64,000 nucleotides of DNA from Acidobacteriota bacterium (GCA_003224085.1 QHYK01000057.1:124001-188000), one strand, 5' to 3'; numbered from the stretch's first letter, positions 1-63,728 are shown. Numbers and translations: made by a program. Notes: generated by a model from the sequence alone, not told the origin.

Positions 1-1053
1 GCAGTGGGTCCCGGAGACTTGCCGAACGTGGACTCGGTGCGCAAGGCGCTGAACGTCACGTGCGCCGAATTGATGGCGCTGCGGTCCGCACCACCGGCGC
101 AGGATTACGCCGGACCAGTGCTTTTTGAAGCGCGAGCGGCGGGGGCGCTCCTGGCGCAGGTGCTTAGCCCGGCGATTAGTGGCGCACGGCCGCCTATTTC
201 TTTCAGCCCGGTGCTGGAACAAATGCTGACCGGACTGGGAGGAAAGAGCGACTGGGTCGGGCGGCTGGGCGCGCGGGTTTTGCCGTCCACGGTGACGCTG
301 GTCGATGACCCAAGCGAAAGGCAGTTCCAGGGCACCCCCTTGATCGGCGGATACGGAGTGGACGAAGAAGGTGTGCGAGGCGAGAAAGTCAGGCTCGTAG
401 AAAACGGCATGCTTAAGAGTGAACTCATGTCCCGCCGACCGGGGCCGGATTTTGAGCGGTCCAACGGCCACGGGCGCGCCGCGTTTTTGAACGAGGCCAA
501 GCCCACGATGAGCAACCTGGTTTTTTCTTCCTCGGAGACTCTTTCGCCGGCAGACTTGAAGAAGAAATTTCTCGACCAATGCCGCGCGGAAAAGAAGTCG
601 GAGCGCGAGCAGTATTGCCTGGTCGTGCGCGAGATGGACAACCCGGCGCTGAGCCTGCTCCATCAGGAGGACTTCTCCGAGTTGCTGGCGAGTTTCGGCG
701 GAGGTGCGGGAACGGGCGACCGCCTGCCGCTTGTTGTGTATCGCATCTATCCCGACAGCGGGCGCGAAGAAATGATCCGCGGAGCGCGCATCATTGGCTT
801 GAATACCCGCGCGCTGCGGAACATCGCCGGGATCGGGAGCGACAGTTTTGTGTACAACTACATGCAAAGCCAGGCCAACGGCTTCGCGGGCACGGCGCTG
901 AGCGCTTTCGGATCGGCACAACCTGGAGCTTGCTTGCCTGCTTCTCTTGTCGCGCCCGCTCTTCTCTTCGACGAAGTGGAAGTCCGCGGCGAGCGCGGCG
1001 AGGCCAAGCGGCTTCCACTCTTGCCCCCGCCGCCCTTGACGGCGTCAAAATGA
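1..1053 (+). CDS. TldE/PmbA-like metallopeptidase-family protein (5' truncated)
   Basis: The reading frame is open to the window edge, so the N-terminus is missing; at least 350 residues remain. They correspond to the C-terminal half of the TldD/PmbA family, which works as a TldD-TldE pair that degrades unfolded peptides and matures some modified peptides. The region that in TldD carries the HExxxH zinc motif aligns here with a segment around residues 46-60 (counting from the GTG at 4) that reads ALLAQVLSPAISG, without histidines. The glycine-rich stretch QGTPLIGGYGVDEEGV and the GHGR segment fit the family. This suggests the non-metal partner (TldE/PmbA-like); a catalytic TldD would be expected upstream, outside the window. 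Identification of the family is fairly sure, the subtype is inferred. Confidence 0.8.
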   Translation, partial: AVGPGDLPNVDSVRKALNVTCAELMALRSAPPAQDYAGPVLFEARAAGALLAQVLSPAISGARPPISFSPVLEQMLTGLGGKSDWVGRLGARVLPSTVTLVDDPSERQFQGTPLIGGYGVDEEGVRGEKVRLVENGMLKSELMSRRPGPDFERSNGHGRAAFLNEAKPTMSNLVFSSSETLSPADLKKKFLDQCRAEKKSEREQYCLVVREMDNPALSLLHQEDFSELLASFGGGAGTGDRLPLVVYRIYPDSGREEMIRGARIIGLNTRALRNIAGIGSDSFVYNYMQSQANGFAGTALSAFGSAQPGACLPASLVAPALLFDEVEVRGERGEAKRLPLLPPPPLTASK

Positions 1054-7100: not shown

Positions 7101-7661
7101 TGGACGGAAGCTCCGGAAACGCCTGCCCAGCTCATCCGCCAGCGTTTCCGGTGGACATTTGGCACATTGCAATCCTTCTGGAAACACAGCAGCACGCTGT
7201 TCCGCCCGAAGTATGGAACACTCGGGTGGGTTGCCCTGCCAAACATCTTCGTTTTTCAGTTGGTCCTTCCTCTTATCTCACCGATCATTGATTTGCTTTT
7301 CCTCTGGTCCCTCGCGCTGTGGGCGCTCGAAAAGCTGCAACTCTCCTGGTTGCCGACGCTTCATGCAACCACCGGCGACTTGATGCGCTCCATCTTTTTC
7401 TTCATTGGCTTTTTGCTGATTGACGTGTTCACGTGCGTCCTTGCCTTCGCGCTGGAGCGAAAAGAAGACTGGTCCCTGCTTGTTCCCGTTCTCCTGCAAC
7501 GCTTCTACTACCGCCAGTTAATGTACGTGGTGCTCTTCCGCTCGGTAAAGGAGGCCGTGCGTGGCCGGCCCGTGGGCTGGCGCGGCGTCGAGCCGGAAGG
7601 ACCACCGGCGCCGACGCTTCCTGAGGCTCCTGCTAAACCCGCGGCGGTCGCGGGAAACTAA
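4188..7661 (+). CDS. GH18-polysaccharide deacetylase-GT2 trifunctional fusion
   Basis: 1157 residues joining three carbohydrate-active modules. An N-terminal anchor (about 23-43) is followed by a GH18-like domain (about 75-430) with D224-F-E226 at the position of the catalytic DxE. Then comes a NodB deacetylase (about 490-700) with D501/D502, H552/H556 and the RPPYG motif at 592. After a helix near 725-755 lies a GT2 synthase (about 770-1000) with DGS at 807-809, D857-A-D859, E948-D949 and QRFRW at 985-989; further helices close the protein. The logic is synthesis of a beta-linked N-acetylglucosamine-type polymer on the cytoplasmic side, with deacetylation and trimming outside. All catalytic motifs look intact except that the GH18 motif is short. 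Glycan identity is inferred. Confidence 0.9.
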   Translation: MKERRPIFYDAERVRWRHTRRALEISGALLTLLLVYFFITIAASVDLPAGLLPDTKLGYHALKTKKKLLPVREGRRRRVANIGSVPASYDPVRAAFFVSWDPNSLASLKKHYREIDLLIPEQLHAVSADGALTVVDYEHGQNRAKVSPTKAIAILKQDELHQWMKSLNPPVELPMMALLNNYDGVHWRIDDMVKLLANPASRQRLVTDAVEFAVQSHEAGIVVDFEEVPDTSQANYREFAAELGPALHSVGLKLMLELPARDDAYDYGFFAQQCDAIVLLNYDEHWQSSPPGPIASQDWYVENLRQIREVVPPRKLIVAVGSYAYDWSEAATKTHEPAQSLTIQEALLHAFESETQVEIDSASLNPHYSYSDEHGHVHQVWMLDAVTAYNELRASERTGVQGTALWRLGSADTSLWPVWDATRPDDAIRQKLEDLPPGPDLILEGDGDVWHFLDTPKRGHRTFTYDSTADLITSEKYDAYPLSYHIDQIGAAKKKLAITFDDGPDPTWTPKILDVLKEKNVPATFFVIGLSANKWPQILRREYAEGHEIGNHTYSHPDWESPNLSATQIRWELNLTERLIESLVGAKPLLFRPPYGIDHQPEFAEEVAHLPTAQEMGYIIIGQKVDPHDWSQLSPGVPLPAATIVENALREAPEGNIILLHDGGGNRSQTVLALPQLIDALRAQGYEFVSVPELIGKTRAQVMLPLSRKEQFEARADGFIFGIYHWSWVVISATFILGIILVSGRTLIIGILALIEKLRPDGPEIRGPLPGVTVLIPAHNEESVIIQTVNSVLESDYLDLQIIVVNDGSTDKTRELLDAHFSRQPRVRIIHQVNRGKAAALNVAMSQAETEIVVTIDADTEIEPDAIRKLVRHFADPTVGAVAGNVKVGNRSRWLTRWQALEYITSQNMEKRAFDLLNCITVVPGALGAWRRQAIEAAGGITADTVAEDADLTIAIRRLGWRIGYDEEAIAWTEAPETPAQLIRQRFRWTFGTLQSFWKHSSTLFRPKYGTLGWVALPNIFVFQLVLPLISPIIDLLFLWSLALWALEKLQLSWLPTLHATTGDLMRSIFFFIGFLLIDVFTCVLAFALERKEDWSLLVPVLLQRFYYRQLMYVVLFRSVKEAVRGRPVGWRGVEPEGPPAPTLPEAPAKPAAVAGN

Positions 7662-8166
7662 TCCTGCTCACTTTCGAATCACGCTAACGTCAGACGGCAA
7701 TAGCACCTCTCTGTTCTCCGCCGCTCGGAGAAAGTTCGTTTTGCTCCCCAGTTTTCGCGGCGGCATCCGGTGCGCGGGTTCATCGTGGCCGGCTCCCGGG
7801 GGCGGACCTGGTTCAAACACATGATTGAAAACGAGCGGGTGCGCCTCACAAGTCAAGGCAAGACAGCTTCCGGAGTGAATGACGCGGTGAAGGTGTTCTC
7901 GCAGTTCTACGACCTCTACCTGATGCAGGGACAAACGCCAGGACAAATACTCGCTCTGCGTCCGCAGGGGAGGTATGTGGAAGCGGACGAAATGACCCAC
8001 GGCTTCACTCGGGGACACGAAGTTTTGTGCCGAGGTTGTTTCCATCGTTTTGGGACCGGGCCAAAGAAAAATCGGCGGGTGCGAATGGTGCGAATTGGCC
8101 CATTTCCGCTCGGGGCTTGAGTTGTTGTACGATATCCACCTTCGCTAGCTAAGCTAGGAGGTCCCC
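7662..8166. other. 505-bp intergenic stretch with no recognisable gene
   Basis: Two overlapping open frames exist, one on each strand (7770-8120 plus, 116 codons; 7668-8045 minus, 125 codons). Neither has a convincing ribosome site, signal peptide, membrane segment or family motif, and they overlap almost fully, so at most one could be real. The last 50 bases contain GCTAGCTAAGCTAG-like repeats just before the ribosome site of the next gene. I see no terminator after the fusion gene. Confidence 0.4.
8156..8161 (+). promoter_or_regulatory. Strong Shine-Dalgarno site for the iorA-like gene
   Basis: AGGAGG lies five bases before the ATG at 8167. It fixes the start of the iron-sulfur subunit. 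Confidence 0.8.
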
Positions 8167-8652
8167 ATGGCAATCAGTTTCACCCTAAATGGCAAGCCGG
8201 AATCGGTCGACGTCAGCCCGGACATGCCTCTGCTCTGGGTGCTGCGTGACACACTGGGCAAGACCGGCACGAAGTTTGGTTGCGGTATGGCACTTTGCGG
8301 CGCATGTACGGTGCACATCAACGGTGAAGCTACGCGCTCCTGCATCACGCCCGTCTCCAGCGTGGCTGGAAAGAAGGTCACCACCATCGAGGGTCTGGCC
8401 ACGGACGAAAGCCACCTGCACCCCGTTCAGCAAGCCTGGATGGAGGAAGACGTACCCCAGTGCGGTTACTGCCAGTCCGGGCAAATTATGTCTGCCGTGG
8501 CATTGCTCGCCAAGAAACCCAACCCGACCGACGCCGACATCGACGATGCCATGAGCGGCAACATCTGCCGTTGCGGCACCTACCAGCGAATTCGCAAAGC
8601 CATTCACCGCGCCGCCTCCACAATGGCGGGCAAGGCGCATTCAGCCGCGTAA
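8167..8652 (+). CDS. [2Fe-2S] subunit of an IorAB-type molybdenum hydroxylase
   Basis: 161 residues, the usual length of small subunits of the isoquinoline 1-oxidoreductase/aldehyde oxidase branch of the xanthine oxidase family. The plant-ferredoxin-type cluster is held by C39, C44, C47 and C59; the second, helical cluster by C99, C102, C134 and C136. The spacings CGMALCGAC and CGYC...CRC are all intact. It passes electrons from the molybdopterin subunit encoded 44 bp downstream. It has no signal peptide of its own, whereas its partner has a Tat signal, so the folded complex is probably exported together. Substrate (N-heterocycle or aldehyde) cannot be told from sequence. Confidence 0.92.
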
Positions 8653-8696
8653 TTCTATCTCGATCGCTTTCTAACCATTCCGTCCCGAGGTGTGCC

Positions 8697-10919
8697 ATGG
8701 CAACTGCTCCCGTTGTGAATCGCCGTGACTTTCTAAAAAAGAGCGCCGCGGGCAGCGCGGCACTGGTGATTGGTTTTCACTTGAGCCCGCGGGCATTTGG
8801 CGATCAGGCGAAGGATCAGGAAGAGAAGACTCCGAATCCATTCGACGCCTGGGTGCGCATTACGCCGGATAACCGCGTCACGTTGGTCCTGGGGAAGTCG
8901 GAGATGGGTCAGGGTGTCTATACCTCCTTGCCGATGATTCTTGCCGAAGAGCTGTGCGCGGATTGGAAACAGGTGCGTGTGGAGCAGGCCCCTACCAATC
9001 CCAAGATTTATGACCTCGGAACCGGCGGCAGTGGCAGTGTCGAGGGCTCCTGGCTTCCTTTGCGGCAGGCCGGCGCCGCCGCGCGCGAGCTGTTGATTGC
9101 TGCCGCGGCGAAGAAATGGGAGGTTGGCGCGGACACTTGCAAAGCCAAGAATGGCTACGTTGTTCATGGCCATCCGGAGCGGTCCTTCCGTTTTGGCGAA
9201 CTCGTCGCCGAAGCTTCAAAGCTCCCGATTCCCGACCTGCACAAGGTGCCGCTCAAGAATCCCAGCGACTTCGTCATCGTTGGCCGCGAAGTGCTCCGCC
9301 TCGACGCGGCAGCAAAATCCACCGGCTCGGCCAAATTCGGCATCGATTCGCGCGTGCCCGGTATGCTTTACGCGGTGATTGCGCGTTGCCCCGTGTTTGA
9401 AGGCAAAGTGGCTTCCTTCGATGCCACCAAAGCAAAAGCCGTTCCCGGCGTGCGCGACGTTTTCGAGATAAAGACCAGCGGCCGGGGAGCTTCCACCACC
9501 GGTGGCGTGGCCGTTCTTGCTGACAATTCCTGGGCTGCCATCCAGGGCCGGAAAGCTCTCGCAGTGAATTGGGACGAAGGCCCGGCCGCAAACGAATCGA
9601 GCGACGAGCTGCGGAAGCAGTTCCTGGAAAACGCAGCGAAGCCTGGAAAAAACGTCCTTCGCAACGACGGCGACGCGGATGCCGCCCTCTCCGCTTCCGC
9701 AAAGAAAGTGGAAGCGATCTACGAACTACCCTTTGCGGCCCACGTTTGCATGGAGCCAATGAATTGCACCGTGCACATTGGTCCGGACAGCGCCGAGGCT
9801 TGGGTGCCCTCCCAAGGGCCACAGTGGGCGCAGGCCGTGATTGCGGAAATTGCCAAACTTCCTCCGGAAAAAGTAGTTGTGCACACCACTTTGATGGGCG
9901 GCGGCTTCGGTAGACGCTATCACGCGGACTTCGTGATGGAAGCAGCACAAGTAGCGAAGATTTCCAGCAACCCAGTCATGGTGCTATGGACCCGCGAAGA
10001 CGACATGCAGCACGATTTCTATCGTCCCGCGTCCTATCACAGGCTGCAAGGCGCCCTGGATGGCGAAGGCAAGCTGGCCGCCTGGAAGCATTTTCAGACT
10101 TCCACTTCCATTGCCGCAAAGTGGAGCCAAAAAGGTGCCGATGATCCGGGGATGGGAGAATTCGGTAGCGGGGCAACCATTCCTTATTCCACGCCGAACG
10201 TCCGCATTGAATACACGCTTGCGCATTCCAGCGCGCCTCGCGCCTGGTGGCGCTCGGTTGAACATTCCAGCAGCGGCTTTGTCATGGAAAGCTTTGTGGA
10301 TGAACTAGCCCATGCTTCGGGACAAAATCCGCTTGCCTTTCGCCTGAAGTTGATTGGGGACGACCGCAAGATTCCGCAGTTTGGCGAAGGCCGAGAGGAC
10401 TATCATCCGCTCGACACCGCTCGGCTGAAAGGCGTACTGCGGCTCGCTGCCGAAAAGGCGGGCTGGGACAAGCCCCTTCCCCAGGCCCAAGGCCGCGGTA
10501 TCGCTGCCTTTTACTCCTTCTTCAGCTACGTGGCGGCGGTAGCGGAGGTTGCCGCGCATCCCAGCTCGTTCAAGGTCAAGCGTTTGGTTTGTGCGGTTGA
10601 TTGCGGCCGCGTGGTCAACCCCAACGGCGTGCGCGCCCAGGTAGAAAGTGCGGCGATTTATGCGCTTGCCGCGACCGTCAAGGACGCTATCACCGTAGAC
10701 CGCGGCCGTGTTGTGCAAGCCAATTTCAACGATTACGAAATGATCCGTATGAACGAAGCTCCGCCGATCGACGTTTACCTCGTGCCTAGCTCAGAGGACC
10801 CGAGCGGCATCGGCGAGCCAACCGTTCCCGTGATTGCCCCGGCCCTCTGCAATGCCATTTTCAACGCCACCGGCAAGCGGCTGCGCCGTTTGCCGATTCG
10901 CGGTGAGGACCTAGGGTAG
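8697..10919 (+). CDS. Molybdopterin-binding subunit of an IorAB-type hydroxylase, Tat-exported
   Basis: 740 residues. The ATG at 8697 is chosen because it begins a twin-arginine signal (NRRDFLKKSAAGSAALVIG, residues 8-26); the open frame upstream is only an overlap with the preceding gene. The body is a xanthine dehydrogenase-type large subunit with the glycine-rich molybdopterin-contacting segments GTGGSGSVEGS and MGGGFGRR, and the C-terminal GIGEPT motif whose glutamate (about E707) is the catalytic base in this family. With the preceding small subunit it would hydroxylate a heterocycle or aldehyde in the periplasm. No cytochrome subunit or XdhC-type maturation factor lies next to it, so the electron acceptor is unknown. 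Confidence 0.9.
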   Translation: MATAPVVNRRDFLKKSAAGSAALVIGFHLSPRAFGDQAKDQEEKTPNPFDAWVRITPDNRVTLVLGKSEMGQGVYTSLPMILAEELCADWKQVRVEQAPTNPKIYDLGTGGSGSVEGSWLPLRQAGAAARELLIAAAAKKWEVGADTCKAKNGYVVHGHPERSFRFGELVAEASKLPIPDLHKVPLKNPSDFVIVGREVLRLDAAAKSTGSAKFGIDSRVPGMLYAVIARCPVFEGKVASFDATKAKAVPGVRDVFEIKTSGRGASTTGGVAVLADNSWAAIQGRKALAVNWDEGPAANESSDELRKQFLENAAKPGKNVLRNDGDADAALSASAKKVEAIYELPFAAHVCMEPMNCTVHIGPDSAEAWVPSQGPQWAQAVIAEIAKLPPEKVVVHTTLMGGGFGRRYHADFVMEAAQVAKISSNPVMVLWTREDDMQHDFYRPASYHRLQGALDGEGKLAAWKHFQTSTSIAAKWSQKGADDPGMGEFGSGATIPYSTPNVRIEYTLAHSSAPRAWWRSVEHSSSGFVMESFVDELAHASGQNPLAFRLKLIGDDRKIPQFGEGREDYHPLDTARLKGVLRLAAEKAGWDKPLPQAQGRGIAAFYSFFSYVAAVAEVAAHPSSFKVKRLVCAVDCGRVVNPNGVRAQVESAAIYALAATVKDAITVDRGRVVQANFNDYEMIRMNEAPPIDVYLVPSSEDPSGIGEPTVPVIAPALCNAIFNATGKRLRRLPIRGEDLG

Positions 10920-58659: not shown

Positions 58660-58992
58660 ATGCATTTTGACAAGAACCTAACCGGAAGAACGGAAAAAAG
58701 ACTACCCATCATGGTGGTGGTGCGCCTCTCGGCCTTGGAACCGGGGGGCGGGGAAGTAGAGGAAAAAACCTACACCGATAATCTGAGCTCTCGCGGGGTT
58801 CGCGTGTGCTCCGCTCATCGCTGGCAACCGGGGGACATTGTGCAAGTTGCTCCCGTAGATCAGGGGCCGCCCATGGACGGCGAGGTCGTCTACTGCGAGA
58901 GGTTTGACAAGTCCCGTTTTTTTGTGGGCCTCAAGTTCCCTCGCGGACGCGCTCCCTGGCGCATCCTGCAACGCTATGAAGGCGCTTCTTGA
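58660..58992 (+). CDS. Stand-alone PilZ-domain protein
   Basis: 110 residues consisting of one PilZ barrel. The c-di-GMP motifs are R10-TEK-R14 and N41-L-S-S-R-G46, both complete, so ligand binding is likely. PilZ proteins of this kind act as adaptors for motility or polysaccharide secretion. ATG at 58660, no clear ribosome site. No partner gene is adjacent. Confidence 0.88.
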   Translation: MHFDKNLTGRTEKRLPIMVVVRLSALEPGGGEVEEKTYTDNLSSRGVRVCSAHRWQPGDIVQVAPVDQGPPMDGEVVYCERFDKSRFFVGLKFPRGRAPWRILQRYEGAS

Positions 58993-59485: not shown

Positions 59486-61180
59486 TCACGGCGTGCGCAA
59501 AACTGTTCCGTAGAACACGCCTTTTCCTCCCTGCAGACTGCGCCCGTAGGAAAACACCACATTCACGCCCCCCAGGATGCGCACCTTGCATTGCAAGCCG
59601 GAATCCCACAGCCAGCCCCGCGAGCCGAAAAACCCCGAGGAATCCGCGATAGCGCCATGGTCGAGGAATGGTCCGAGCTTCACAGCGAAAAAACCATTCC
59701 CGTAAACATTCTTATCCATCTCCCCGTTCGCAAGGAAATATCGCCGCCCGAGCGGCGCAGCTCCCTTCCTGCCGTTCATCGCTCCGGCATGGCCGCGTAG
59801 CCACAGATCATTGTCGCGCTCCACTCCGAGTTGGAAAAGCTCATCGAGAGACGCTTTGCCAGCGGTTGCGCCTGCGCGAATCTGCCCTCGGATCTCGAAG
59901 TCATCTCCTCTCGCGCGAGGGAACCAGTGCGCGTCAAGCGATCCCCGGAAAGTCGCGAAGGGCCCGAGCGCGTTTGCAAACTCGCGGCCCGCCCTGGCCT
60001 CGATCGAAGAATCGAGCCTGAAGCGGCGCTCGGGAACGCGCAACAAAGTACGCTGAACGCCCACCCAGCCTGCAAGCGAACTCCCTCTGCTCGAAACCCC
60101 GCGCACCGCAGGCGAAAGTCCCCTGTTAACATTTCGAATATTGCGATTGGCAGCCTCTGCGCCGGCGCTCCAGCTCCAAAGCCCATTTACAACATCGCGA
60201 AATTCGGTGCCAGCGGCGATCCGGCGGAGGTTCACGTCCGTGAGCGGTGTCACGGCGCCGAAAAAAGTTTGCGACAGATTCCAATTCTCATTCCGCGCAT
60301 CGGCAAAAATACGTAAACGCAAGCTGGGATCGCCGTAAACCGGCAGGGAAGCCGCAACCAAGACACGGCGCTTCTGCGCGTCCCACCGCACAAGCGAGGT
60401 CAGATTCACAGCGCGGTGGCCCAAATTATAGAGTTCCGGATAGACGGTTGTATAAGGCAGGCCGCTCAAAAGAGAAATGACCCCTTCGACTTTCGAATCG
60501 CCCCAGAGATTCCTCTCCGCCAGCCGTACGGTAAGGTCATAGTTTCCGGATTCCGCAGCCGTGAGTTCCATCCGCCGGCTGGTGAAAATGCCCAGATTGT
60601 CCAGGCGCGACTCTGCGGTGTGCAGCGCGTCCGTGGTCAAAACTTGCGGGGCGTTGAAACCCAGGGCGCGGTTTCGCAGCGGCTCCGACACTTGCGGCGA
60701 GGGCGAGAAACTGACGCTTCGCAAGCGAGGCCTCTGCTGGCGATTCCAATACTTAACGGCCGCTTCGAGGTTTCCTTCGAGAAAGTAGATGGTAGCGAGA
60801 AACTCGTGCGTGTAGGCGTCGCGCGGGTTCAGCCGCAGCGCCCTTTGCAGGTTTTTCTTGGCGAGAGGGAAATCTTTCTGTTTGTAGGCGATGCCCGCCA
60901 GTTCCACCGGAAACCGCGAGTCGCGCGGTGACTTTCGCGCGCCGGTTTCGAATGCCAGGGTTGCCTGCTCCCATTTTTTCAGGCGTGCAAGGGCGAGCCC
61001 TCGCAGAAAATCCAACTCCGCGGATTGACCCGCGGGCCCTTGGGAAAGCTGGGCCGCCTCATCCCAATGTCCGGCCTCGAATGCACTTTGCGCAGCCGCG
61101 AGCCGCGCTTGCTCGGCGGCGCGATCTTGGCCGAAACCTGGAAGGGCAAGAAAAAATAGGGCGAGGACAAAGCGATTCAC
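59486..61180 (-). CDS. TPR-POTRA-Omp85 outer-membrane protein
   Basis: 564 residues: a signal peptide (about 1-18), a TPR region (about 22-150, e.g. ALARLKKWEQATLAFETGARKSP), a POTRA-like domain (about 178-225, LTTDALHTAESRLDNLGIFTSRR ... YDLTVRLAERN) and a C-terminal Omp85-type barrel (about 230-564). The Omp85 loop-6 signature appears as LDELFQLGVERDNDLWLRGH, with LRGH (461-464) in place of VRGF, and the chain ends in strands with terminal aromatic residues. GTG at 61180 is chosen because it overlaps the C39 peptidase stop (GTGA), follows GGAAAAGG and yields a signal peptide; the frame continues far upstream as antisense-like overlap. The fold assignment is from visible motifs, not a search. 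Confidence 0.78.
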   Translation of the reverse strand: MNRFVLALFFLALPGFGQDRAAEQARLAAAQSAFEAGHWDEAAQLSQGPAGQSAELDFLRGLALARLKKWEQATLAFETGARKSPRDSRFPVELAGIAYKQKDFPLAKKNLQRALRLNPRDAYTHEFLATIYFLEGNLEAAVKYWNRQQRPRLRSVSFSPSPQVSEPLRNRALGFNAPQVLTTDALHTAESRLDNLGIFTSRRMELTAAESGNYDLTVRLAERNLWGDSKVEGVISLLSGLPYTTVYPELYNLGHRAVNLTSLVRWDAQKRRVLVAASLPVYGDPSLRLRIFADARNENWNLSQTFFGAVTPLTDVNLRRIAAGTEFRDVVNGLWSWSAGAEAANRNIRNVNRGLSPAVRGVSSRGSSLAGWVGVQRTLLRVPERRFRLDSSIEARAGREFANALGPFATFRGSLDAHWFPRARGDDFEIRGQIRAGATAGKASLDELFQLGVERDNDLWLRGHAGAMNGRKGAAPLGRRYFLANGEMDKNVYGNGFFAVKLGPFLDHGAIADSSGFFGSRGWLWDSGLQCKVRILGGVNVVFSYGRSLQGGKGVFYGTVLRTP

Positions 61181-61704
61181 GAGGCCTTTTCCGGGACCGC
61201 TAGCACCATCCAATTGCGGCTGGACCGCCATTGTCTTTCGAAGAGTGCGCGCTCTACGCGGAGAAGCTTGCCACGAGCGGGGTCGTGGATAAAAACCGCT
61301 TCGTGTTGCCAGTCGATCCCGGCGACCACCACGTAATGGAGCGGGGCACTGGAACTGCCGGGCTGGAGGCTTACAATCAGCGGCCTCCCCTGCCTCAGAT
61401 GCTCCTGAAGGTCTCTCCAACTTCCGTCCATCGAGAAAACCTGAAAGCCGGAAGATTTCAAATACTTCACCAGGTCGAAAGCGAAAATGCCGCGCGCCTT
61501 GCGCGAATAAAGCTGCTTTTGAATGGCCGCAGCGTCCACCCGCTGGGAGTCCAGCCGAACGCCATGCTCCTTCCAATACTGCAAGACCATGGAGATTGCC
61601 GCAGCCCCGCAGCCGTCCTCGCTCTGTTTCACGAATGGCACGTCAAGCCAGACTCCCGCACTGTCCTGAGGCGCGGGTTGCACCGCGCACCCCAGGAACA
61701 GCAT
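61177..61704 (-). CDS. C39-type cysteine peptidase lipoprotein (PA2778-like)
   Basis: 175 residues. Catalytic residues of the C39/papain-like fold are all present: Q27, C32 in EDGCGAAAISMV, H123 in PLHYVVVAG and D141 in HDPARG. The N-terminus MLFLGC carries a lipobox-like Cys6, but the signal is very short; in the same frame just upstream the codons read ESFLTRRKRATFGFIL, a perfect basic-hydrophobic signal start, yet no ATG, GTG or TTG precedes it. A non-standard start or a longer gene is possible. It pairs with the PA2779-like gene upstream and overlaps the Omp85 gene downstream by four bases. Confidence 0.85.
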   Translation of the reverse strand: MLFLGCAVQPAPQDSAGVWLDVPFVKQSEDGCGAAAISMVLQYWKEHGVRLDSQRVDAAAIQKQLYSRKARGIFAFDLVKYLKSSGFQVFSMDGSWRDLQEHLRQGRPLIVSLQPGSSSAPLHYVVVAGIDWQHEAVFIHDPARGKLLRVERALFERQWRSSRNWMVLAVPEKAS

Positions 61705-61765
61705 CAGGATGAAACCGAAAGTGGCTCGTTTCCGCCGCGTAAGGAAAGACTCCGCGGTTCTGGAG

Positions 61766-62170
61766 TTACCGCAGCGCTAGCGCCAGGACAATGATGCCCA
61801 GGGCGATCACAATGATCCAAAGCAGGTCGCGGTCGGAAATGCGTCCCGCGGCAAAATCCGCTTGCGCTTGCCGGGAACGCTCCGCCAGCTTGGCGAGGTC
61901 TTCGTCGCTCAATTGGCCGATGGCCTTGTCCACCTTTTGGTAATCGAGCTTGCCGGATTTCAGCGCTTTTTGGCCCTGGTCGGTGGAAAGCAAGGTTCGT
62001 ACGGCTTCTTCGTTCGCTCGCCGGGTCTGCGAAAAACGCGCCGCGTCTTTGCTCAAGTCGCTCAGAGAAATGACGTGCGGCCGGTCCTGCGCCCGCGCCG
62101 GAAACGCCGTGGCTACGAACAGTACGGCGAGCCCTAGCAGACACGCTTTCCACTTGAGGCGAGAATGCAT
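61766..62170 (-). CDS. PA2779-family-like membrane protein
   Basis: 134 residues: a signal peptide (about 1-28, ending PARAQ), a helical middle with VRTLLSTDQGQKALKSGKLDYQKVDKAIGQLSDEDLAKLAERS and one C-terminal membrane helix (about 115-133). In pseudomonads a protein of this shape (PA2779) is encoded next to a C39 peptidase (PA2778); the same order is seen here. Its function is unknown. The ATG at 62170 follows AGGAGGA. 61 bp separate it from the peptidase gene. Confidence 0.72.
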   Translation of the reverse strand: MHSRLKWKACLLGLAVLFVATAFPARAQDRPHVISLSDLSKDAARFSQTRRANEEAVRTLLSTDQGQKALKSGKLDYQKVDKAIGQLSDEDLAKLAERSRQAQADFAAGRISDRDLLWIIVIALGIIVLALALR

Positions 62171-62295: not shown

Positions 62296-62787
62296 TTATT
62301 TTGCCGGAAGCAACTGCTGGTACTTGGCGGCATCCACGGACTTCCATTCACCCTTCCTGATTCCTTCGCGAATCTGCTTGGCCGTTTTGCCTTTGCGAAC
62401 CTGTTCGTAGCTGTAGAAGTCTTCGTAGATGCAGGTGCCGCAGCCTGAACCGTGCTCGCTGGCGAAACAATCAAACAAGCTGGTGTGCCCCTTGCTGCGG
62501 TCACAATGGCAATAGCAAGGCTGCTGGTAGAGCGTCTTCTTGATCTTCGCAGCAATGGCGTACGCGTTTTTCACCATGGGTTGGCTGAACAGGTCCGGGT
62601 TCATGGTTTCCGGCAGTCCACCTTTGGGAGCTTGCGCGTGATAGGCCGGAACGTCGTTATCGGCCCCTTCCTCGGTTGAGCTTCCCTGTTGGGATGACCC
62701 GGAAGCCGCCGGCAGAGGAACGAAGGTGAACGCCAGCGCCGCACCAAAGAGAATCATCGCGCTTCCCACTCTCGCAACTCCGCTCAT
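62296..62787 (-). CDS. Exported PCYCGC-motif protein
   Basis: 163 residues with a signal peptide (about 1-29) and the cysteine-rich signature PCYCHCDRSKGHTSLFDCF ... GCGTCIYE (about 90-122), seven cysteines that match the PCYCGC-motif lipoprotein family. No lipobox cysteine is seen, so this one is probably soluble in the periplasm. The motif is thought to bind metal, but no function is established. ATG at 62787. It is upstream of the PA2779-like gene by 125 bp on the same strand. Confidence 0.82.
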   Translation of the reverse strand: MSGVARVGSAMILFGAALAFTFVPLPAASGSSQQGSSTEEGADNDVPAYHAQAPKGGLPETMNPDLFSQPMVKNAYAIAAKIKKTLYQQPCYCHCDRSKGHTSLFDCFASEHGSGCGTCIYEDFYSYEQVRKGKTAKQIREGIRKGEWKSVDAAKYQQLLPAK

Positions 62788-62856: not shown

Positions 62857-63555
62857 CTACACAACGGCGCACGCAGGCGACCGCCGCGTTGCGGCGGCCT
62901 GGGCCTCGAGATGTCTCGCGCGGAGGTGCCGCTGAGCCCGCCGGCCCCAGCCGCGCACGAACGTAAAATTCAGTGCCCCGCCGATGGCTGAGCTGGCCAG
63001 CGGCACCATACGCCCAACCCATTTCTCTGCGCTCTCCGTTCCGAGCTTCGCTGCCAGTTGCCTTGCGATCCGCGGCGCGATTTTTTCGCAAATCTGTTTT
63101 CCTGCCAAATCTTTCCCGTAATCAACCCCCGAGGCAGCCGCGGCGGCCTTCCACATTTCCATGCGCTGTTCGGTTTCTCCCGCTTCGAATCCGTAGAGCA
63201 GCGCAAGCCTCTGAAGCAAGCGCAACGTAATGATCGTCAAAAAGCTGGCGTCCGGGAGAAACGTGATCATGCCTCCCAGCCCAAGCCCCGCACCTTCGAC
63301 CAGCGCAAGGCGCTCCGCATCACGGATCAATTTCGCTGCGATAGCGTCCAGATGATCTATGGGAACGTCCTTCATCCGTGTGAAATTCGGCACCCACAGA
63401 CCATGCTTCTCCGCCAGCTGCCGCCGGAACGTTTCCGGGTCAATTTCAATGGAGCGCATTCCCCGAAGCGCGCCTAATTTCAGGAAACGCCGCGCCATGC
63501 GGCCCGTCAAAGAAGCCTTCGCCGAATTGTGTAACTTTGCCATGCTCTCTCTCAT
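62857..63555 (-). CDS. EcsC-family protein
   Basis: 232 residues (from ATG 63555; ATG 63543 is an alternative). The family pattern is visible: IDHLDAIAAKLIRDAERLALVEGAGLGLGGMITFLPDASFLTIITLRLLQRLALLYGF in the middle and MVPLASSAIGGALNFTFVRGWGRRAQRHLRARHLE at the end. EcsC of Bacillus is linked to an ABC transporter that affects secretion and proteases, but most members are uncharacterised; in this genome no EcsA/B neighbours are seen. It is the first gene of the envelope cluster, 70 bp upstream of the PCYCGC gene. Confidence 0.85.
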   Translation of the reverse strand: MRESMAKLHNSAKASLTGRMARRFLKLGALRGMRSIEIDPETFRRQLAEKHGLWVPNFTRMKDVPIDHLDAIAAKLIRDAERLALVEGAGLGLGGMITFLPDASFLTIITLRLLQRLALLYGFEAGETEQRMEMWKAAAAASGVDYGKDLAGKQICEKIAPRIARQLAAKLGTESAEKWVGRMVPLASSAIGGALNFTFVRGWGRRAQRHLRARHLEAQAAATRRSPACAVV

Positions 63556-63728
63556 CTTAAAGTCTTCGAAGGCCGGCTGCAATGTCAGGAAGCCTGCCTG
63601 GTCCAAAGAACTGGTCCAAAGAACAGGTACGCAAACGTCGAGAAATGGGAGGGTTACCTGCCAAGCGTCATGAAAACACAAGTCCTACTTGACGCGGAAA
63701 CTCTTTTGGGTAAACTGCATTTTTCTTG

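What the first reader, a model, noticed from the sequence alone, without database searches (positions are those of the whole stretch)
59486..62170. C39 peptidase coupled to a TPR-POTRA-Omp85 pore and a PA2779-like protein
Seen: three consecutive genes, with the Omp85 start overlapping the peptidase stop (GTGA) and all peptidase catalytic residues present. Known: PA2778/PA2779-type pairs are conserved but uncharacterised, and Omp85 proteins insert or secrete proteins. Inference: the peptidase, anchored at the outer membrane or periplasmic face, may process a substrate secreted or assembled through the Omp85 pore, a system I do not know to be described. In pseudomonads the TPR is fused to the peptidase; here it sits on the barrel.
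Basis: partly seen in the sequence, partly recalled or inferred. Interest (0 to 1): 0.75.

Follow-up and report, generated by a model that had tools for sequence, protein, structure and literature searches.

The report
Protease wired to an outer-membrane channel
A soil acidobacterium carries a three-gene unit in which a cysteine protease works beside, and in some relatives is fused into, an Omp85-type outer-membrane barrel, next to a small membrane-tailed protein that is probably its dedicated target; this combination appears not to have been described and suggests a new way of coupling cutting to the outer membrane.

Summary
On the minus strand lie a PA2779-like protein, a C39 peptidase and, overlapping its stop by GTGA, a TPR-POTRA-Omp85 protein. 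The predicted structure (pLDDT 87.5) has TPR helices, one POTRA and an Omp85 barrel, matching BamA, TamA and FhaC at Z 24-26. The trio keeps order and strand in 33 of 33 testable C39 loci. Across 297 Acidobacteriota genomes the barrel co-occurs with the C39 (20/21) and with PA2779-like proteins (21/21). In seven genomes C39, TPR, POTRA and barrel form ONE polypeptide, a single clade, so peptidase and barrel are one machine. The PA2779-like protein carries an [Ala/Gly]-Gly motif directly before its C-terminal hydrophobic tail; its Gly is the family's most conserved residue (67/68). The one exception is the one barrel genome without this C39; in another genome the partner keeps little beyond a signal peptide and the GG tail. 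I infer that this protein is the C39 substrate, cut at [AG]G. Whether anything crosses or enters the outer membrane through the barrel is unknown. Closest precedents: PlpD, FapD/FapF and PA2778/PA2779. Verdict: real, a new variant of known kinds.

The parts
61766..62170 (-). PA2779-like protein (134 aa): signal peptide, helical domain, motif D-F-A-A-G at residues 105-109, C-terminal hydrophobic tail (about 113-133); proposed substrate
   Evidence: NF033919 36.2 bits and 32 of 32 homologues match that model; Gly109 invariant in 32 homologues and in 67 of 68 wider relatives; low-confidence AF2 model puts the AG in the loop between a helix and the tail helix
61844..61858 (-). codons for the D-F-A-A-G motif (residues 105-109), proposed C39 cleavage site
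   Evidence: most conserved column of the family; AGG in Azoarcus and YGG in G011
61177..61704 (-). C39-like cysteine peptidase (175 aa), presumed periplasmic; catalytic Gln27, Cys32, His123, Asp141; true start codon uncertain
   Evidence: PF13529 5.9e-17; NF033920 1.4e-17; expected catalytic residues invariant in 34 homologues
61177..61180 (-). GTGA overlap: stop of the peptidase gene and GTG start of the barrel gene
   Evidence: sequence; a start 4 bases before the C39 stop is also available in several relatives
59486..61180 (-). TPR-POTRA-Omp85 protein (564 aa): helices/TPR 20-148, one POTRA 152-222, barrel to 562
   Evidence: AF2 pLDDT 87.5; Foldseek and VIA matches to BamA, TamA, FhaC; TPR profiles
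59789..59800 (-). LRGH (residues 461-464), variant of the Omp85 loop-6 VRGF/Y hallmark
   Evidence: Arg462 nearly invariant, His464 invariant, Asp507 (putative partner) invariant in 32 homologues

Best explanation
It is a self-contained envelope-processing module. SHOWN computationally: a C39-like cysteine peptidase, a TPR-POTRA-Omp85 barrel and a PA2779-like protein that ends in an [AG]G motif plus a hydrophobic tail are inherited together; in one clade peptidase, TPR, POTRA and barrel are a single chain. INFERRED: the peptidase is exported by Sec, sits on the TPRs at the periplasmic mouth of the barrel and cuts the PA2779-like protein after [AG]G. That frees its helical domain from its C-terminal membrane tail, much as other proteases cut tripartite C-terminal signals. 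MORE SPECULATIVE: the freed part, or the tail peptide, is handed through the single POTRA to the barrel and inserted into or moved across the outer membrane.
For: Omp85 fold. Seven single-chain C39-TPR-POTRA-barrel proteins; one clade at support 99/94. Co-occurrence in 297 genomes: PA2779 with C39 29/32, p=2e-28; barrel with C39 20/21, p=2e-19; barrel with PA2779 21/21, p=2e-24 (the genomes are related, so the p-values overstate). No other gene is conserved around the trio across diverse loci, so the substrate is in the trio or unlinked. The motif Gly is the most conserved residue of the PA2779-like family, 23-28 residues before the C-terminus in nearly all, and recurs in a betaproteobacterium (PAGG). 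Correlated loss: G005 has the barrel and a PA2779-like protein without [AG]G, and no C39 of this type. Converse case: G289 keeps the C39 while its partner is reduced to a signal peptide, a short linker and ..VVGG + tail. In the window's genome only one protein carries this tail, so the pairing is one to one. Precedent: FapD, a periplasmic C39 whose catalytic Cys is needed for secretion through an outer-membrane pore (PMC5557850).
Against: No cleavage has been shown. AAG is not the canonical GG/GA of cytosolic C39 sites. If the tail sits in the inner membrane, a barrel-bound peptidase must reach across the periplasm. Six genomes have PA2779 and a canonical C39-TPR peptidase without any adjacent Omp85, so cutting would not need the barrel. 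Four genomes have the PA2779-like gene elsewhere in the genome. Correlated loss of motif and C39 rests on one genome. The model of the PA2779-like protein is poor (pLDDT 63).
Confidence: 0.5

Rival explanations
1. The Omp85 barrel is only an anchor. It holds the C39 peptidase at the inner face of the outer membrane, doing the job that a lipid does for the canonical PA2778-type peptidases; nothing passes through or into the barrel.
For: The six canonical C39-TPR peptidases with a PA2779 partner carry lipobox-like signals (TSC, SSC, VSC, CGC, ASC, AGC), whereas the trio and fused peptidases generally do not. In PlpD the enzyme domain stays periplasmic (PMC11116518).
Against: The loop-6 Arg/His and barrel Asp/Gly signature residues are kept, more than an inert anchor would seem to need; PMC11116518 states that previously studied Omp85 proteins promote assembly or translocation.
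Confidence: 0.25
2. The PA2779-like protein is an inner-membrane adaptor or regulator of the peptidase, not its substrate; the peptidase trims some unlinked protein, perhaps one that passes through the barrel.
For: PA2779-like proteins are small and co-occur tightly with the C39. Some genomes hold extra orphan copies.
Against: The most conserved position is the Gly before the tail, not a surface of the helical domain. The helical domain can be lost while GG and tail remain (G289), and GG is lost where the C39 is absent (G005). No further conserved gene marks another substrate.
Confidence: 0.2
3. The barrel is a TPR-16-strand exopolysaccharide exporter (PgaA/BcsC type) or a Slam-type TPR-barrel, and the peptidase is incidental.
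For: TPR followed by a barrel is also the layout of PgaA, BcsC and Slam; weak TPR_Slam matches occur in 6 of 32 homologues.
Against: A POTRA lies between TPR and barrel; the structure matches BamA/TamA/FhaC. A distant relative matches the POTRA, Omp85 and BamA models. No other gene of any kind is conserved nearby, and the C39 is fused to the barrel in seven genomes.
Confidence: 0.03

Closest known systems
PlpD, patatin-like Omp85 (type Vd)
   Same: An enzyme domain, one POTRA and an Omp85 barrel; the fused relatives have the same layout with C39-TPR in place of patatin (PMC11116518)
   Different: Cysteine peptidase instead of lipase; TPRs between enzyme and POTRA; a conserved third gene; in the window the enzyme is a separate protein
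FapD/FapF of the Pseudomonas Fap amyloid system
   Same: A Sec-exported C39 peptidase dedicated to an outer-membrane translocation system encoded beside it (PMC5557850)
   Different: FapF is a trimeric 12-strand barrel with a coiled coil, not Omp85; no amyloid subunits here; FapD is not fused to the pore
PA2778/PA2779 pair (NF033920, NF033919)
   Same: C39 of the same kind next to a PA2779-type protein; [AG]G before the C-terminal tail also in Azoarcus
   Different: Canonical PA2778 carries its own TPR and, in the acidobacterial cases seen, a lipobox-like signal; no Omp85 adjacent
BamA / TamA / FhaC (Omp85/TpsB superfamily)
   Same: POTRA + barrel fold, Z 24-26
   Different: One POTRA, N-terminal TPRs, protease partner; VRGF/Y replaced by LR[AG]H
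GlyGly-CTERM / rhombosortase
   Same: Gly-rich motif, then hydrophobic tail at the C-terminus of the target (PMC3237569)
   Different: C39 instead of an intramembrane rhomboid; one target in the window genome, not many; no basic cluster at the end

Membership tests
Omp85/TpsB superfamily | At least one POTRA domain before the barrel | tested here: met
   Beta-alpha-alpha-beta-beta at 152-222 in the model; VIA alignments to BamA/TamA/FhaC begin at 143-152; Pfam POTRA 22.1 bits over the cut-off of 21.3 in relative L016
Omp85/TpsB superfamily | 16-stranded Omp85 barrel fold | tested here: met
   Z 22-26 over 280-384 residues against Omp85 structures; 15 strands counted, the first strand region (224-247) is modelled partly as helix
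Omp85/TpsB superfamily | Loop-6 VRGF/Y motif | tested here: inconclusive
   Variant LRGH / LR[AG]H at the expected place; Arg nearly invariant, His in place of Phe/Tyr
Omp85/TpsB superfamily | Match to a curated Omp85 sequence profile | tested here: inconclusive
   No Pfam Omp85 match for the window protein; relatives score 22.8 (cut-off 24), NF047779 1.6e-7 and BamA model 1.5e-7, all under cut-off
Peptidase C39 / C39-like | Gln-Cys-His-Asp catalytic set and C39 profile | tested here: met
   Q27, C32, H123, D141 invariant in 34 sequences; PF13529 and PF03412 over cut-off; ComA/PCAT relatives in PDB. Activity not tested
PA2778 family cysteine peptidase (NF033920) | C39 domain fused to C-terminal TPR, score over 150 bits | tested here: not met
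   63.9 bits, C39 half only; TPR lies on the next gene. Some single-chain relatives match positions 2-247 of 255 but stay under the cut-off
PA2779 family (NF033919) | Profile score over 40 bits | tested here: inconclusive
   36.2 bits for the window protein; 21 of 297 phylum genomes hold a member over the cut-off
PlpD / type Vd | Patatin domain on the same chain as POTRA and barrel | tested here: not met
   No patatin match; enzyme is a separate C39
Fap secretion (FapF) | Trimeric 12-strand FapF-type barrel and amyloid subunits | tested here: not met
   Omp85 fold with POTRA; no further gene conserved beyond the trio
PgaA/BcsC or Slam TPR-barrel exporters | TPR joined directly to a non-Omp85 barrel of that family | tested here: not met
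   POTRA between TPR and barrel, BamA/TamA-type barrel
All of the above | Demonstrated substrate, cleavage or translocation | not testable with these tools
   Needs experiment

The most novel reading that the evidence does not exclude
A new protease-coupled Omp85 translocon. The C39-TPR-POTRA-barrel (one chain or two) cuts a dedicated cargo at a C-terminal [AG]G-hydrophobic tail, releases it from the inner membrane and passes it into or across the outer membrane: a hybrid secretion route distinct from types I, V and VIII.
Probability: 0.27. Interest if true: 0.85.

Novelty: new variant of a known kind. Interest (0 to 1): 0.62.

Why it matters
The 2014 superfamily survey PMC4104836 sorts Omp85 proteins into 10 groups; a word search of its text found no C39, tetratricopeptide or acidobacterial member. 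A natural C39-TPR-POTRA-Omp85 fusion gives a direct genetic argument that proteolysis and an Omp85 barrel work as one unit. It also gives the uncharacterised PA2778/PA2779 pair a testable role: protease and target, with a named cut site. C39 peptidases are mostly known as cytosolic parts of ABC transporters; with FapD this would be a second, independent case of a periplasmic C39 serving the outer membrane.

Tried and rejected
Pfam/NCBIfam on the window protein alone: TPR only, the barrel is too diverged. PDB sequence-profile search: TPR proteins only in the list shown. Lipoprotein anchoring of the peptidase: lipobox not conserved. Exopolysaccharide exporter and Slam readings: contradicted by POTRA and fold. 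Search for a second protein with the [AG]G tail in the window genome (many-to-one sorting tag): none. Search for further conserved neighbours: none across diverse loci. NF033920 as a phylum-wide probe is swamped by unrelated TPR matches, so a C39-only profile was used. Literature: no characterisation of PA2778/PA2779 in the held library; no paper found pairs Omp85 with a C39. I could not read the NCBIfam entry texts, which may already suggest PA2779 as the peptidase's partner or target. Operon promoter: only a weak promoter-like match at 62231-62202.

Full report
WHAT IS THERE. Window 59486-62170, minus strand, holds three genes in one direction: a 134-aa PA2779-like protein (62170-61766), a 175-aa C39-like peptidase (61704-61177) and a 564-aa protein (61180-59486) whose GTG start overlaps the peptidase stop (GTGA). 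The peptidase matches Peptidase_C39_2 (5.9e-17) and the C39 half of the PA2778 model (1.4e-17); Q27, C32, H123 and D141, the residues expected for C39 catalysis, are invariant in 34 homologues.

THE 564-AA PROTEIN IS TPR-POTRA-OMP85. Sequence profiles see only TPRs in it. A model built from 32 homologues has mean pLDDT 87.5 and pTM 0.81: paired helices 20-148, then one beta-alpha-alpha-beta-beta POTRA (152-222), then a barrel; 15 strands were counted and the first strand is not well formed. Foldseek's best matches are TamA and BamA (E about 1e-13); VIA-align gives Z 25.7 to F. nucleatum BamA (rmsd 4.2, 369 residues, 151..561), 25.4 to TamA and 23.9 to FhaC. Diverged relatives also reach Omp85-type models by sequence: L016 matches POTRA over its cut-off and Omp85 just under, and BamA and Omp85 NCBIfam models at about 1.5e-7. 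The loop-6 hallmark is present as LRGH (LR[AG]H in most relatives), with an invariant barrel Asp507 that may pair with the Arg, as is known for BamA and FhaC (the pairing is recalled, not tested).

CONSERVATION. A scan of one genome per species found 36 C39 loci, all acidobacterial (groups 1, 2, 3, 11, 13, 18 and others). All 36 have the PA2779-like gene upstream. All 33 that extend far enough have the barrel downstream, same order and strand. Nothing else is conserved around the trio across diverse loci. In 297 genomes of the phylum, a POTRA-barrel profile finds 21 strong members (more than 300 bits; most of the rest, under 60 bits, look like BamA-type POTRA cross-matches; G062 is intermediate at 111 bits). 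Of the 21, 20 have the C39 adjacent or fused and all 21 have a PA2779-like gene somewhere (17 adjacent by my count of the maps). Fisher p-values are 2e-19 and 2e-24; PA2779 with C39 gives 29/32, p=2e-28. Shared ancestry inflates these values, but the pattern is clear.

FUSION. In G014, G143, G175, G231, G245, G269 and G285 the C39, TPR, POTRA and barrel are one open frame of 673-793 codons, with C39 and TPR matches in order, and POTRA/Omp85 matches at the C-terminal side of some. These C39 domains form one clade (support 99/94). This is the strongest evidence that peptidase and barrel act together.

THREE STATES OF ONE MODULE. (a) Canonical PA2778 type: C39-TPR with a lipobox-like signal plus PA2779, no Omp85 adjacent (G029, G042, G066, G185, G254, G286). 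(b) The window type: C39 alone, TPR on the barrel, PA2779. (c) Single chain. The C39, a TPR and a PA2779-like partner are the constants; the means of holding the peptidase at the membrane varies. A further clade of C39-TPR proteins (G034, G146, G264, G288, G296) has no PA2779.

THE LIKELY SUBSTRATE. Among 69 distinct PA2779-like sequences the most conserved column is a Gly (67/68) preceded by Ala or Gly, followed by 23-28 residues in nearly all, mostly hydrophobic, to the C-terminus. The same motif stands in a betaproteobacterial member (..PAGG, Azoarcus plasmid, next to an annotated PA2778 peptidase) and in the diverged G011 (..YGG). The only exception, G005, has the TPR-POTRA-barrel and a PA2779-like gene but no C39 of this type in a genome rated 100% complete. 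Conversely G289 has the C39 without barrel, and its partner is reduced to a signal peptide, a short linker and VVGG + tail. In the window genome no other protein carries this tail. In a weak model the AG lies in a loop between a helix and the tail helix. I therefore infer cleavage after [AG]G by the C39. This is not shown.

MECHANISM. Shown: parts, fold, linkage, fusion, motif. Inferred: Sec export of peptidase and PA2779-like protein; peptidase docked via TPR at the POTRA side; cut at [AG]G. Speculative: transfer of the product into or across the barrel. PlpD is a caution: its enzyme domain, once thought to be secreted, stays in the periplasm (PMC11116518). FapD is an encouragement: a periplasmic C39 whose active-site Cys is required for secretion through FapF (PMC5557850).

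COMPARISON AND NOVELTY. The window protein fits Omp85 by fold. It is not a canonical PA2778 (TPR absent, 63.9 of 150 bits) nor PlpD nor Fap. A word search of the Omp85 survey PMC4104836 gave no hit for peptidase, tetratricopeptide or Acidobacteria (it does discuss a group it calls Omp85-metalloproteases), and no paper found joins Omp85 with C39. BBJ25 of Borrelia is an Omp85 encoded near TPR proteins but without POTRA, and no protease is named in its cluster. I rate it a new variant of known kinds.

LIMITS. Distribution outside Acidobacteriota could not be surveyed. Start codon and signal peptide of the window peptidase are unresolved: no ATG/GTG/TTG lies in frame upstream of the short ATG. 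Metagenome-assembled genomes may miss genes.

Noticed in passing
window 61704 (peptidase start): The only standard start codon gives a very short signal (MLFLGC..); an RRKR + hydrophobic stretch lies in frame upstream without ATG/GTG/TTG. Close relatives show TTG or ATG at other places; a rare start codon is possible.
   Followed up: partly
window 62296-62787, minus: CYCXC-family (seleno)protein (NF041379, 97 bits; Pfam PCYCGC), here with Cys; found next to the trio only in group-2 acidobacteria among the loci compared.
   Followed up: partly
L201 (G062), 7110-8831: A distant stand-alone TPR-POTRA-Omp85 protein (111 bits) between a UbiD-like and an oxidoreductase-like gene, with no C39 or PA2779 beside it.
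   Followed up: partly
L153, L154, L156, L159-L161 (G221, G242, G024, G050): PA2779-like genes away from the C39, most with the AG motif intact; in L160 and L162 just downstream of a gene that looks like a TonB-dependent receptor.
   Followed up: partly
L139:7861-8172 (G289): PA2779-like partner reduced to signal peptide, short linker and GG + hydrophobic tail next to an intact C39; no Omp85 of this family found in the genome.
   Followed up: yes
L134, L136, L150-L152: A separate clade of C39-TPR proteins without a PA2779 partner; in L136 a small membrane protein gene precedes it.
   Followed up: no
window 62857-63681, minus, and 58660-58992, plus: EcsC-family protein and a PilZ-domain protein flank the region.
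   Followed up: no
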